Shown piece after piece: positions 15,797-49,257 of a stretch of 64,000 nucleotides of DNA. Source of the DNA: Pyrococcus horikoshii OT3 (GTDB taxonomy: Archaea; Methanobacteriota_B; Thermococci; Thermococcales; Thermococcaceae); contig NC_000961.1 in assembly GCF_000011105.1 (NCBI RefSeq), positions 1,598,662 to 1,662,661 of the forward strand. Direction: 5' to 3'. The translations under genes and the position numbers were made by a program. The notes under the pieces are model-generated. The model had not been told where the DNA came from and ran no database searches. It was given only the letters and a program-made list of their open reading frames with translations. Numbering within the stretch: position 1 is the stretch's first letter; every line of letters starts with the position of its first letter.

Positions 15797-16554
15797 TAAG
15801 GGAAGGGGATAAAATAATCTTGGTAGATCCCAGGGGTAAGAGGTACTTAGTTACCGCTACTCCAAAGGATTTTCACACGGATCTGGGGATAATTAAGCTT
15901 GGAGATGTTATAGGAAAGAACTTCGGAGATAGCATTAAGAGTCATAAAGGACACGTGTTTAAGATCCTAAAGCCCAGGATAGTGGATTATTTAGATAAGA
16001 TGAAGAGGGGCCCACAGATAGTTCATCCCAAAGATGCAGCATTAATAGTTGCTTATGCTGGAATCTCCCCAGGAGACTTCATTGTTGAAGCGGGAGTTGG
16101 AAGTGGTGCTCTAACTTTATTCCTTGCTAATATAGTCGGACCTCAGGGAAAAATCGTTAGCTACGAGATTAGGGAAGATTTCGCAAAGTTAGCTTGGGAG
16201 AATATAAAATTAGCAGGATTTGAGGATAGAGTCACGATAAAGCTCAAAAATATATACGATGGCATCGACGAGGAAAATGTAGACCATATAGTACTTGATT
16301 TACCCCAGCCAGAGAGGGTCGTTGAGCATGCAATCAAGGCCTTGAAGCCTGGAGGGTTTTTCATTGCTTATACACCCTGTGCAAATCAGGTAATGAGGCT
16401 TCATGATAAGCTTGCGGAGTTTAGAGATACCTTTATGAGGCCAAGAACAATCGAGGTGATAGTATTCGATCAGGAAGTCAAAAAGGAGTGTATGAGACCC
16501 AAGACGACAGTTTTAGCCCATACAGGTTATATAACCTTTGCTAGAAAGCTATGA
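15793..16554 (+). CDS. trmI: tRNA (adenine-57/58-N1)-methyltransferase TrmI
   Basis: S-adenosylmethionine-dependent enzyme that makes m1A58, and in Pyrococcus also m1A57, in the T-loop of tRNAs. The 253-residue protein starts MIREGDKIILVDPRGKRYL and has the class I SAM site EAGVGSGALT, the DLPQPE motif and the C-terminal QEVKKECMRP with cysteines known to stabilise the archaeal tetramer. I recall the P. abyssi enzyme as nearly the same. The ATG overlaps the DUF257 stop; in-frame upstream codons exist but are not conserved. The 3' end touches an antisense C/D sRNA. Confidence 0.96.
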   Translation: MIREGDKIILVDPRGKRYLVTATPKDFHTDLGIIKLGDVIGKNFGDSIKSHKGHVFKILKPRIVDYLDKMKRGPQIVHPKDAALIVAYAGISPGDFIVEAGVGSGALTLFLANIVGPQGKIVSYEIREDFAKLAWENIKLAGFEDRVTIKLKNIYDGIDEENVDHIVLDLPQPERVVEHAIKALKPGGFFIAYTPCANQVMRLHDKLAEFRDTFMRPRTIEVIVFDQEVKKECMRPKTTVLAHTGYITFARKL

Positions 16555-16618
16555 TCAGTTGAGAGGGGGCTCATCATCGAGCGCCTCTCAGGGTACCGTG
16601 AAGATCATCATCACAAAG
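16551..16618 (-). ncRNA. C/D box guide sRNA (rRNA 2'-O-methylation)
   Basis: On the minus strand the order is box C GTGATGA (16608-16614), guide, D' CTGA, a short spacer, C' GATGATGA, a 12-base guide GCCCCCTCTCAA and box D CTGA (16555-16558). This is the complete archaeal C/D sRNA layout. The D' guide (ending CTTCACGGTACC) is complementary to GGTACCGTGAAG, which resembles the conserved 23S rRNA segment around GUACCGUGA in domain I. The gene is antisense to the last bases of trmI and lies just upstream of tRNA-Val. Confidence 0.88.
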
Positions 16619-16671: not shown

Positions 16672-16748
16672 GGGCCCGTGGTCTAGTTGGTCATGACGCC
16701 GCCCTTACGAGGCGGAGGTCCGGGGTTCGAATCCCCGCGGGCCCACCA
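16672..16748 (+). tRNA. tRNA-Val (UAC)
   Basis: A full cloverleaf: acceptor GGGCCCG pairing with CGGGCCC, D-arm, anticodon stem CCGCC/GGCGG with loop CTTACGA (anticodon TAC, valine), T-loop GGTTCGAATCC and encoded CCA. A TATA box GGTTTATAATTG lies at about 16634-16643. The 3' 46 bases are the left copy of the attachment repeat of the integrated element; the gene stays intact after integration. Confidence 0.97.
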
Positions 16749-22507: not shown

Positions 22508-24268
22508 TCAAGTATTAAGGTGAGCGTCGAACTTATTTACCCTCTCGTAGTCGGCATAACTTTTATCTAGCCTTTTACTAACATAAGGTCCATCTTTCCT
22601 ATAGCCAAACTTCCTGTAGTACTCCCTAACGCCAACTCCGCTAATAACTAGGATCTTCTTTGCATCAAATTCCTCCCTAGCTATCCTTTCGGCCTCAGAT
22701 AGTAACTCCCTCCCATAACCTCTATGTTGCCATTCATACTTAGGCTTCTCCCCTATTGGAACTAGGGGACCATAAACGTGAAGTTCTCTGACTATAGCGG
22801 ATGGACAACAGTTTATCTCTTTTCTGTGGGCCTTCTCACTTGGAATCCTAAGCCTTAAAAAGCCTATTAAAATGTCATTTTTGACATCTTCAAAGCTTAA
22901 GAATATTTCTTGACCCTCGGAAGCTTCATAGTCCTCCCTTAGCAATTTTATATGCTCTACCTCGGGGATTTTACCGAACTTCTGCATCTGATGTCCAACT
23001 TCCCTAAACCTTATCTCCCTTGGCCTTATTCCCCGCCTCACCAGCTCGTTGAAAACGAGCTGACCAAGATTCGAGTGCTTCACTCCAGCGACTATTAGGT
23101 GAGCAGGTATATCCCTTTGAATTCTCATAACCCTAACCCACTTTGGAAAAATCTTATAAGCCTCAACTAGAAGCTCAAGAGCTTCTTCAGTTGTGTATGG
23201 CCTATAAAGACCCGCCTTGTACCAGGCATAAAGGGGAGCATCCCTGGTGACTAGGGTGGGGTATATTTTAAGCATGTCAGGCCTAAACCTAGGATCTTCA
23301 AATATCGTTCTAAAGGTATAAAGATCCCTATCGAAGTTGCTCCCAGGGAGGCCAGGCATTATATGATAATTCACCTTAAGTCCAGCGTCTTTTAATAACT
23401 GGGTAGCCTTAATAATTTCCTCAACTCCATGGCCACGCTTGGTTCTCTCGTGTATAAAGTTGAATATTGTTTGAACCCCAAGTTCCACTCTTGTTGTTCC
23501 AAAGCTTAACATCCTATCAATTTGTCTTTCAAAGGCCCAATCCGGTCTCGTCTCTATTGTTAATCCAACCATCCTAACTTTAGCTTTCTCATTTTTCCTT
23601 TGCTCATCTTCAAGGTAGTAATAAGGCTTCCTGTGGGTTCTCTCCCAGGCCCTTTTAAATTCAGGATCCTCTTTGAAAACTGATTTATCACCCTTTAATA
23701 TCAGTCTAACGAGCTTTTCCTCCAAGTTATCAATATCCTTAAAGTAGTGAAAGTCGTTCATGGCCTTGAATGCACACTTAACGAACCACTCCTGATAATC
23801 CAAGTCCACCGCAGGAAAAGTTCCTCCCTGGATTATAACCTCAACCTTATCTATTGGATGACCTATGTCGTATAATTGCTTAAGTCTGGCCATCATGATT
23901 ATATAGGGATGGTAACCATACTGGGAAGCCCTTAACGCTGAGGGTTCCTTTCCGGTGTAGCTCTGTGGAGAACCAACGCTTGGGCCACCTGGGCAATATA
24001 TACACCTTCCATGAGGGCAAGGGAAAGGCTTCGTCATCATTGCAACGACTGCAACTCCACTTATAGTTCTAGCAGGCTTCTTCTTCAATAGATCTCTAAA
24101 TTTTTCCCTCTTGTCCTTTGGTAGGGCCTTCCATATATCGGAATTCTTAGGGAGCTTAGGAAGATGATACTTCCTGGCCACCTCTATTTTTAATTTGTTT
24201 AACTCCTCCCTACTTTTCACCTTTCCAGAGAGCAGAGCTTCCACAATCTCAACTATTGCTTCTCTCAT
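22508..24268 (-). CDS. elp3: Elp3, tRNA U34 carboxymethyltransferase (radical SAM + GNAT)
   Basis: Modifies the wobble uridine of tRNAs using acetyl-CoA and radical SAM chemistry. The protein has a conserved basic N-terminal part, a radical SAM cluster CPHGRCIYCPGG, the segment VGLTIETRPDW and a C-terminal acetyltransferase domain with QHRGYGRELLSEAE. The open frame extends to 24361 but I place the start at ATG 24268 (MREAIVEIVEALL, 586 residues): the first part of the longer frame is a C/D sRNA gene, and a TATA-like ATATTTATAAGC (24292-24303) lies about 30 bases upstream of 24268, giving a leaderless mRNA. Archaeal Elp3 works without the other Elongator subunits. Confidence 0.95.
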   Translation of the reverse strand: MREAIVEIVEALLSGKVKSREELNKLKIEVARKYHLPKLPKNSDIWKALPKDKREKFRDLLKKKPARTISGVAVVAMMTKPFPCPHGRCIYCPGGPSVGSPQSYTGKEPSALRASQYGYHPYIIMMARLKQLYDIGHPIDKVEVIIQGGTFPAVDLDYQEWFVKCAFKAMNDFHYFKDIDNLEEKLVRLILKGDKSVFKEDPEFKRAWERTHRKPYYYLEDEQRKNEKAKVRMVGLTIETRPDWAFERQIDRMLSFGTTRVELGVQTIFNFIHERTKRGHGVEEIIKATQLLKDAGLKVNYHIMPGLPGSNFDRDLYTFRTIFEDPRFRPDMLKIYPTLVTRDAPLYAWYKAGLYRPYTTEEALELLVEAYKIFPKWVRVMRIQRDIPAHLIVAGVKHSNLGQLVFNELVRRGIRPREIRFREVGHQMQKFGKIPEVEHIKLLREDYEASEGQEIFLSFEDVKNDILIGFLRLRIPSEKAHRKEINCCPSAIVRELHVYGPLVPIGEKPKYEWQHRGYGRELLSEAERIAREEFDAKKILVISGVGVREYYRKFGYRKDGPYVSKRLDKSYADYERVNKFDAHLNT

Positions 24269-24307
24269 CTTCCCAGCCTCTCTATAAATTTGCTTATAAA
24301 TATTTGG

Positions 24308-24366
24308 AAAATCAGCGTTGGCGGATCTCATCATAGCTTCAGCTCCCCGATTCCTCATCACGTCAA
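24308..24366 (-). ncRNA. C/D box guide sRNA overlapping the apparent elp3 5' end
   Basis: On the minus strand: box C GTGATGA (24355-24361), guide GGAATCGGGGAG, D' CTGA, spacer AGCTA minus its last bases, C' TGATGA (24328-24333), guide GATCCGCCAACG and box D CTGA (24312-24315). Both guides are exactly 12 bases. A TATA-like CTTAAAATGG (24388-24397) lies at the right distance upstream. The ORF reading through it gives MMRNRGAEAMMRS, an unlikely protein start. Targets were not identified by eye. Confidence 0.88.
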
Positions 24367-24484
24367 AGAGGTATAGTATTCTACACCATTTTAAGCTTAA
24401 GCTTTTATCTCTTGGAAGGTAAACTGATTCAATAACGCTAACATTTTTCTATCTTGGAGTTTACATAAATAAAAGGTGAGGAAA

Positions 24485-25654
24485 ATGAAAAGATTTTACA
24501 TAGCTAGTGAAGAGGAAATAAAAACAGGGAAAACTACTGATATATATTTTCTAAGGACTAGGAAAATCCTAGAAACAAAAAACATAAGAAAAAAAGTGCT
24601 AGCAGATGTAACAACTACTTCTCTCCCTGAAAACTGGAAATGGGGAGTTCTGGTCGGTGTTGAGGAGGTAGCAAAACTCCTAGAGGGAATTCCAGTTAAC
24701 GTCTATGCCATGCCAGAAGGGACAATATTCCATCCCTACGAGCCGGTACTGCAGATAGAAGGAGATTACGCAGACTTCGGAATTTATGAAACAGCTTTAC
24801 TTGGAATGCTAAGTCAAGCTAGTGGGATAGCCACTGCAGCGTTGAGGATCAAGATAGCGGCCAAGTTTAAACCGGTTTATTCCTTTGGAATTAGACATAT
24901 GCATCCCGCAATAGCTCCAATGATTGATAGGGCCGCATTCATTGGAGGGTGCGATGGAGTTTCCGGAGTGCTGGGAGCAGAGATGATGGGAGAAAAGGCC
25001 GTTGGAACTATGCCCCACGCATTGATAATAACCGTAGGTGACCAAGTCAAGGCCTGGAAGTACTTTGACGAGGTAATTGAGAAGGAAGTTCCCAGGATAG
25101 CTCTAGTAGACACCTTCTACGATGAAAAAATTGAAGCGGTAATGGCAGCTGAAGCTCTTGGTAAGAAGTTATCTGCTGTAAGGTTAGACACCCCAAGCTC
25201 AAGGAGAGGTAACTTCAGAAGGATAATCGAGGAGGTTAAGTGGGAGCTAAAGATTAGGGGATATGATTGGGTAAAGATACTTATCTCCGGAGGTCTAGAT
25301 GAAGAGAAAATTAAGGAGATAGTTGATGTAGCAGATGCTTTTGGAGTTGGAAGTGCCATAGCAAGTGCAAAGCCAATAGATTTCGCTTTAGACATTGTAG
25401 AAGTTGAAGGAAAACCAATTGCAAAGAGAGGGAAGCTAAGTGGTAGGAAGCAAGTGTATAGATGTGAAAACGGACACTACCATGTAGTACCTGCTGATAA
25501 AAAGCTCGAGAGATGTCCAGTTTGTAATGCAAAGGTTGAACCATTATTAAAGCCAATTATAGAGAACGGAGAGATTGTGGTTGAGTTTCCGAAGGCTAGA
25601 GATATTAGGGAATATGTGCTCGAGCAAGCTAAGAAATTTAACCTTGAGATTTGA
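24485..25654 (+). CDS. pncB: Nicotinate phosphoribosyltransferase
   Basis: Converts nicotinate and PRPP to nicotinate mononucleotide in NAD salvage. The 389-residue protein has the conserved FGIRHMHPAIAPMIDRAAF with the active-site region, LVDTFYDEK, RLDTPSSRRG and ILISGGLDEE near the phosphate site, as in the archaeal TA1145-type enzymes. A C-terminal zinc-ribbon-like CENGHYHVVPADKKLERCPVC is typical of this archaeal subgroup. ATG 24485 follows GGTGAGG; a GTG at 24476 lies on that site. It diverges from elp3. Confidence 0.93.
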   Translation: MKRFYIASEEEIKTGKTTDIYFLRTRKILETKNIRKKVLADVTTTSLPENWKWGVLVGVEEVAKLLEGIPVNVYAMPEGTIFHPYEPVLQIEGDYADFGIYETALLGMLSQASGIATAALRIKIAAKFKPVYSFGIRHMHPAIAPMIDRAAFIGGCDGVSGVLGAEMMGEKAVGTMPHALIITVGDQVKAWKYFDEVIEKEVPRIALVDTFYDEKIEAVMAAEALGKKLSAVRLDTPSSRRGNFRRIIEEVKWELKIRGYDWVKILISGGLDEEKIKEIVDVADAFGVGSAIASAKPIDFALDIVEVEGKPIAKRGKLSGRKQVYRCENGHYHVVPADKKLERCPVCNAKVEPLLKPIIENGEIVVEFPKARDIREYVLEQAKKFNLEI

Positions 25655-25719: not shown

Positions 25720-26662
25720 ATGAGCTACATACTTTCTTCTTTGTTTAATATTATATATTATTTGTTACTTGGTTTGTTAATTTTGGGTTCTTTTGGTAGT
25801 GCGAGTAATGATAAGGCTTGTCAGCCCGTGAATTACTGGGTTTTTGAGGGTGGATAGTGAGTTGAGAAGAGCGGGCCCAGAGTGGTGGTACTGTCAAGAA
25901 CCCGAGAAAATTAAGAATTTTGAAGGATTCGCATTCAAAGAAAAACCCTACGAATTATTCAAGAAACCAGATCCAATGATATTACATCAGGCTGCAAGGG
26001 AGTTAACTGATTTAGTAGGAATTAACGAGCTTCACGGAAAATTATCTAAGAATCATCAATACAACCTCTTTCTAGGAATGATGTGATACGGCCTCTAATG
26101 AGAGGGACACAGTTCCAAGTTCTAGGTCATAATTATTGTACTTTAGGTTTTCCTGGAGAAAGAAATGGAATAACCGGAATGGTCACTCCAGGCCATTGTA
26201 CCGATGAAGGTAGGTTCCGTGTATCGGTCAGACACTTCCGACCCAAGTTACTATATCGGAAATGTTGAGATAAAAACTTTGGTCTCCAGCCAAAGGAGAC
26301 ATGGCGTGGATAAAAACAACAGTGGAAGTCACTCCTAAAGTTTATCCTTACTTCATTATTAAAGGATACAAATCTTATAAATATTAGTATGTTGGCTCCA
26401 CTGTTTTGAAGAGCGGAAGAACTACAGGACTACCTGGTGGCATTATACTCGATATCTCGAACAGTTTAGAAATCCGTACAACCATGGAGGTAGCTCCTGG
26501 AGATAGTGGCTCTCCAGTATTCTATTGGTGGCAAGGACAGGCCTATAAATATGTACAAATCTACGAACTACTCTATAGGGGGATCCTAATGAAGGAACGT
26601 CCACGTATCTATCCATTGATGACGTCCTTAATAATCTCGGAGTAGAGTTAATAACCGGGTGA
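25720..26662 (+). pseudogene. Decayed secreted trypsin-like (S1 family) serine protease
   Basis: Broken gene. ATG 25720 encodes a hydrophobic signal peptide (MSYILSSLFNIIYYLLLGLL and on to GSAS) that stops at 25855. The remainder is spread over the three frames: SELRRAGPEWWYCQEP (25858-26086), TLGFPGERNGITGMVTPGHC with the catalytic His (to about 26200), VYRSDTSDPSYYIGNVE, GDMAWIKTT with the catalytic Asp (about 26302), SGRTTGLPGG and APGDSGSPVF with the catalytic Ser (about 26505), and a last frame ending GVELITG at 26662. At least five frame changes are needed, so it is inactive. The triad order His-Asp-Ser fits an alpha-lytic-type protease. Confidence 0.88.
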
Positions 26663-49184: not shown

Positions 49185-49257
49185 GCCCCCGGAAACCGCG
49201 GGGGAGGAGCTGAGGCTAAAGCCGAGCTATGACTCCCCTTCGCTCCCCGGGGGCACA
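49185..49257 (+). ncRNA. H/ACA guide RNA (pseudouridylation), single hairpin
   Basis: A GC-rich island in AT-rich surroundings folds into one hairpin: lower stem GCCCCCGG with CCGGGGGC, an internal pocket (AAACCGC opposite TTCGCT), an upper stem GGGGAG with CTCCCC, and an apical kink-turn-like GAGCTGAGGC/GCCGAGCTATGA for L7Ae. The 3' end is ACA (49255-49257) followed by T-rich sequence. TTTAATA at 49155-49161 is a TATA box at -27. The target was not derived with certainty. Confidence 0.88.

What the first reader, a model, noticed from the sequence alone, without database searches (positions are those of the whole stretch)
24268..24366. C/D sRNA masquerading as the elp3 N-terminus
The first about 20 codons of the long elp3 frame are exactly a C-D'-C'-D guide RNA with two 12-base guides. 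A second TATA box lies just before ATG 24268. Gene callers would extend Elp3 by 30 residues of RNA gene. The sRNA and the tRNA-modifying enzyme may share a transcript.
Basis: seen in the sequence. Interest (0 to 1): 0.7.

Follow-up and report, generated by a model that had tools for sequence, protein, structure and literature searches.

The report
Guide RNA upstream of elp3 start
A known type of archaeal guide RNA (sR33) sits just in front of the gene for the tRNA-modifying enzyme Elp3 and by chance reads as an open frame, so a 'longest ORF' gene call would wrongly add 31 amino acids; this is a useful annotation correction but an ordinary arrangement.

Summary
On the minus strand at 24365-24310 lies a C/D box sRNA, Rfam RF01120 sR33 (69.7 bits), with C, D', C' and D boxes and two 12-nt guides. 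It fills the first 17 codons of the 617-aa elp3 frame (GTG 24361). The next 14 codons are a spacer holding a strong BRE/TATA motif (24307-24294), which predicts a start site near 24271, next to ATG 24268. The true Elp3 start is almost certainly ATG 24268: Pfam ELP3_N begins exactly there, 29 other Thermococcales loci start at aligned residues 23-31, and the one other genome with sR33 before elp3 (G007) has an in-frame TGA inside the sRNA. Between the two genomes the RNA elements are conserved while the rest of the extension is not.

'Shared transcript' is only partly supported. In G007 just 13 nt separate the sRNA from elp3, which leaves no room for a promoter. In this genome elp3 appears to have its own internal promoter, so sharing is optional. 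Neither guide has a significant rRNA or tRNA target.

C/D sRNAs overlapping 5' ends of ORFs are a described class (about 7% of archaeal C/D genes; PMC7994747). Verdict: real, mostly correctly read, ordinary in kind.

The parts
24310..24365 (-). C/D box sRNA, Rfam RF01120 sR33
   Evidence: 69.7 bits, model 1-55/55; boxes and guides read directly
24355..24361 (-). C box GTGATGA; supplies the GTG and ATG start codons of the long elp3 frame
   Evidence: sequence
24343..24354 (-). D' guide GGAATCGGGGAG (12 nt); identical in G007
   Evidence: no significant rRNA/tRNA target
24339..24342 (-). D' box CTGA
   Evidence: sequence
24328..24334 (-). C' box ATGATGA
   Evidence: sequence
24316..24327 (-). 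D guide GATCCGCCAACG (12 nt); only 7 of 12 kept in G007
   Evidence: no significant target
24312..24315 (-). D box CTGA
   Evidence: sequence
24388..24401 (-). candidate BRE/TATA for the sRNA (CTTAAGCTTAAAAT), predicted start about 24365
   Evidence: 7.7 bits on a matrix trained without the locus; 171 of 1000 shuffles reach it, so weak; spacing fits the sRNA 5' end
24294..24307 (-). strong BRE/TATA (CCAAATATTTATAA) between sRNA and elp3, predicted start about 24271
   Evidence: 12.2 bits, 1 of 1000 shuffles, 0.055 per kb in coding sequence
22508..24268 (-). elp3 proper, 586 codons from ATG 24268
   Evidence: Pfam ELP3_N begins at residue 32 of the long frame; TIGR01211 902 bits from residue 38; starts in relatives
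24269..24361 (-). spurious 31-codon N-terminal extension of the elp3 frame
   Evidence: in-frame TGA in G007; absent from the other Thermococcales loci; no Pfam match
24476..25654 (+). divergent neighbour, nicotinate phosphoribosyltransferase
   Evidence: NF006415 603 bits

Best explanation
A functional C/D box methylation-guide sRNA gene (sR33) lies in the elp3 leader, in the same orientation, and translation of Elp3 starts downstream of it at ATG 24268. The sRNA is probably transcribed from a weak upstream promoter (start about 24365), then bound by L7Ae/Nop5/fibrillarin and trimmed to its boxes. Elp3 mRNA comes mainly from the internal promoter at 24307-24294 (start about 24271, nearly leaderless), with optional read-through from the sRNA promoter. 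The long reading frame is an accident of sRNA spacing: RUGAUGA read as RTG-ATG supplies start codons, and 12-nt guides plus a 4-nt spacer keep every UGA of the boxes out of frame. Shown: the sRNA anatomy, its conservation in G007 against a non-conserved frame, and the Elp3 start by homology. Inferred: the promoters, RNP assembly and transcript structure. Unknown: the methylation target.
For: sR33 at 69.7 bits here and 50.6 bits in G007, both directly before elp3. This genome against G007: boxes 20 of 22 identical, D' guide 12 of 12, but spacer after the D box 6 of 43 with a 30-nt gap, and an in-frame TGA in G007. Elp3 starts at aligned residue 23-31 in 29 other Thermococcales loci, and of 70 genomes searched only these two align to the first residues. 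Pfam ELP3_N position 1 = residue 32 = ATG 24268. Strong TATA motif 25 nt before ATG 24268.
Against: No expression data. Neither guide has a target in 16S, 23S or the 45 tRNAs better than shuffled guides (P 0.12 and 0.58). The sRNA's own promoter motif is weak (171 of 1000 shuffles). The long frame is open in this genome, so translation from GTG 24361 or ATG 24358 is not formally excluded.
Confidence: 0.9

Rival explanations
1. The sRNA element acts mainly as a cis-regulator of elp3: in the joint transcript its k-turn binds L7Ae and damps Elp3 translation, or processing of the sRNA destroys the elp3 leader.
For: In G007 the sRNA is 13 nt from the elp3 ATG with no room for another promoter. L7Ae represses its own mRNA through a 5' UTR k-turn (PMC5539422), and 5'-overlapping C/D sRNAs lowered reporter expression (PMC7994747).
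Against: Here a strong promoter separates the two, so most elp3 mRNA would lack the element. sR33 lies before elp3 in only two of nine Pyrococcus genomes. The D' guide is conserved 12 of 12, which a mere k-turn would not need.
Confidence: 0.12
2. The long frame is truly translated: Elp3 of this species has a real 31-residue extension and the segment is both RNA gene and coding sequence.
For: Frame open with GTG/ATG starts in this genome.
Against: In-frame TGA in G007; no counterpart in the other Thermococcales loci; Pfam domain begins at residue 32; the extension contains a promoter motif; 27% of random sRNAs with this spacing stay open.
Confidence: 0.04
3. The sR33-like sequence is a decaying or orphan guide RNA without a target.
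For: No significant complement in rRNA or tRNAs; the D guide diverges between the two genomes (7 of 12).
Against: D' guide 12 of 12 and boxes 20 of 22 conserved while the flanks are not alignable.
Confidence: 0.15

Closest known systems
Rfam RF01120 sR33 (Pyrococcus C/D box sRNA)
   Same: Full-length match over all 55 model positions, well above the curated cut-off
   Different: Nothing that matters; one-base insertion against the model
C/D sRNA genes that overlap the 5' end of an ORF (Tripp et al. 2017, as reviewed in PMC7994747; about 7% of archaeal C/D genes)
   Same: sRNA lies at the 5' end of a called ORF, start codons formed by its boxes or just downstream
   Different: Here the overlap is with a spurious extension; the real start codon is 43 nt beyond the D box, with its own TATA motif between
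Stable RNA in an archaeal 5' UTR, such as tRNA-Lys before TK0306 in T. kodakarensis (PMC4247193)
   Same: Stable RNA just upstream of, and possibly co-transcribed with, an mRNA
   Different: C/D sRNA instead of tRNA; co-transcription not shown here

Membership tests
archaeal C/D box sRNA (sR33) | C (RUGAUGA) and D (CUGA) boxes with internal C' and D' in the right order | tested here: met
archaeal C/D box sRNA (sR33) | guides of about 10-13 nt and short D'-C' spacer (K-loop) | tested here: met
   two 12-nt guides, 4-nt spacer
archaeal C/D box sRNA (sR33) | score above the Rfam gathering cut-off for the family | tested here: met
   69.7 against 37 bits
archaeal C/D box sRNA (sR33) | complementarity of a guide to rRNA or tRNA next to the D or D' box | tested here: inconclusive
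   best duplexes no better than shuffled guides: P 0.12, 0.58
archaeal C/D box sRNA (sR33) | expressed and assembled with L7Ae, Nop5, fibrillarin | not testable with these tools
   needs small-RNA sequencing or pull-down
C/D sRNA overlapping the 5' end of an ORF | sRNA overlaps the coding part of the downstream gene | tested here: not met
   overlaps only the spurious extension; the true coding start is 43 nt beyond the D box
C/D sRNA within a protein gene's leader or transcript | same orientation, close upstream, joint transcript | tested here: inconclusive
   orientation and distance met (43 nt here, 13 nt in G007); transcript not testable

The most novel reading that the evidence does not exclude
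A guide RNA captured into the leader of a tRNA-modifying enzyme couples RNA 2'-O-methylation to Elp3 synthesis: one transcript gives both products (in G007), and the present genome has gained (or G007 has lost) a 30-nt internal promoter segment that uncouples them.
Probability: 0.1. Interest if true: 0.45.

Novelty: new member of a known kind. Interest (0 to 1): 0.22.

Why it matters
It corrects the Elp3 start (586 instead of up to 617 residues) and shows a general trap: RUGAUGA boxes look like start codons, so C/D sRNAs just upstream of genes can be swallowed by longest-ORF calls. The two-genome comparison also gives a small natural experiment on whether a guide RNA in a leader affects the gene behind it.

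Tried and rejected
Target search of both guides in own 16S, 23S and 45 tRNAs: best hits (23S 2520-2528; T arm of tRNA-Asn and tRNA-Tyr for the D' guide) are no better than shuffled guides, so no methylation site is claimed. The exact D' complement CTCCCCGATTC occurs in the genome only at the sRNA itself. Searching for sR33 elsewhere in Thermococcales: one-mismatch matches to guide plus D' box in other genera lack the surrounding box architecture where read, so look like chance; the 18-20 bit Rfam hits in other Pyrococcus are below cut-off, and the one read closely (L006) resembles sR30 rather than sR33. A scan of the public genome collection with a 22-nt sR33 pattern found one bacterial metagenome hit, near the number expected by chance. 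A link between the guides and the wobble position that Elp3 modifies was considered: no guide pairs there among the top hits. 'Tko-sR33' in PMC9014305 shares the name, but none of the family's other genera gave a match to RF01120 above its cut-off, so it was not treated as the same RNA.

Full report
What is there. The minus strand at 24365-24310 matches Rfam RF01120 (sR33) over its whole length at 69.7 bits, E 1.4e-11 for the 64 kb window (alignment). Read directly, it has C GTGATGA, a 12-nt guide, D' CTGA, a 4-nt spacer, C' ATGATGA, a 12-nt guide and D CTGA. The window lies in a single-contig genome of 1,738,505 bases; from memory that is the size of Pyrococcus horikoshii OT3. If that genome is in the Rfam seed the score is partly self-recognition, so the conservation in G007 matters more.

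The elp3 frame. The mechanical ORF starts at GTG 24361, which is the C box itself. Residues 1-17 are the sRNA, 18-31 the spacer behind it, and residue 32 is ATG 24268. Pfam ELP3_N aligns from residue 32 at profile position 1, and the 31-residue extension alone has no Pfam match. TIGR01211 aligns from residue 38. In 70 Thermococcales genomes only this one and G007 align to the first residues of the long frame. In the loci read in detail, the first start codon near the conserved region lies at aligned residue 23-31, most often preceded by a GAGAGGTG ribosome-binding sequence.

The decisive comparison. G007 also carries sR33 directly before elp3, with nicotinate phosphoribosyltransferase diverging on the other side. 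Between the two genomes the D' guide is 12 of 12 identical, the boxes 20 of 22, the D guide 7 of 12, and the spacer behind the D box 6 of 43 with a 30-nt gap. G007 has an in-frame TGA in the D'-C' spacer. So RNA features are conserved and the reading frame is not. The other seven Pyrococcus genomes lack sR33 at this place; those whose elp3 leader was read have an unrelated leader and other genes between elp3 and the phosphoribosyltransferase.

Is the open frame surprising? No. A simulation of random C/D sRNAs upstream of a gene leaves 5% fully open in the gene's frame, and 27% if the spacing is that seen here.

Promoters. A BRE/TATA matrix trained on 36 upstream regions of the window, leaving this locus out, gives 12.2 bits to CCAAATATTTATAA at 24307-24294. 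One of 1000 shuffles of the spacer reaches this, and the rate in coding sequence is 0.055 per kb. With the 23-bp TATA-to-start distance reported for T. kodakarensis (PMC4247193), the start falls at 24271, three bases before the ATG. The upstream motif at 24401-24388 scores 7.7 bits and is not significant by itself (171 of 1000), but its predicted start, 24365, coincides with the sRNA 5' end. In G007 only 13 nt separate D box and ATG, so elp3 mRNA there must start at or upstream of the sRNA region. Hence 'shared transcript' is a good inference for G007 and only an option here.

Targets. No guide pairs with 16S, 23S or any of 45 tRNAs better than shuffled guides: P 0.12 for the D' guide, 0.58 for the D guide. 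The review PMC7994747 reports that 28% of Pyrobaculum guides lack a recognisable target, so this is not unusual.

Known context. That review states that about 7% of archaeal C/D sRNA genes overlap the 5' end of an ORF, that the start codon often lies in the guide or downstream of the D box, and that such overlaps lowered expression of a downstream reporter. Here the overlap is with a spurious extension; with the corrected start, the sRNA is a leader-located gene rather than a true 5' overlap.

Verdict. The RNA is a known family in a known kind of place. The more interesting residue is the difference in promoter layout between the two genomes, which is inference from sequence only.

Noticed in passing
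window 16553-16615 (-): Second C/D sRNA, Rfam sR42 (89.7 bits), tail-to-tail with a 293-aa ORF that ends at 16554, and close to a tRNA at 16672-16745.
   Followed up: no
window 49185-49257 (+): H/ACA guide RNA Pab160 (RF02796, 75.5 bits).
   Followed up: no
window 25844-26645 (+): Row of short broken ORFs with motifs resembling a serine protease (TPGHC ... GDSGSPVF) across frames; perhaps a decayed gene. No Pfam match for the pieces.
   Followed up: partly
L053 701-1500 and L050/L051: A lipoprotein-like gene sits between elp3 and the phosphoribosyltransferase gene in G004 but is missing where sR33 lies, suggesting replacement or deletion of the ancestral elp3 leader.
   Followed up: partly
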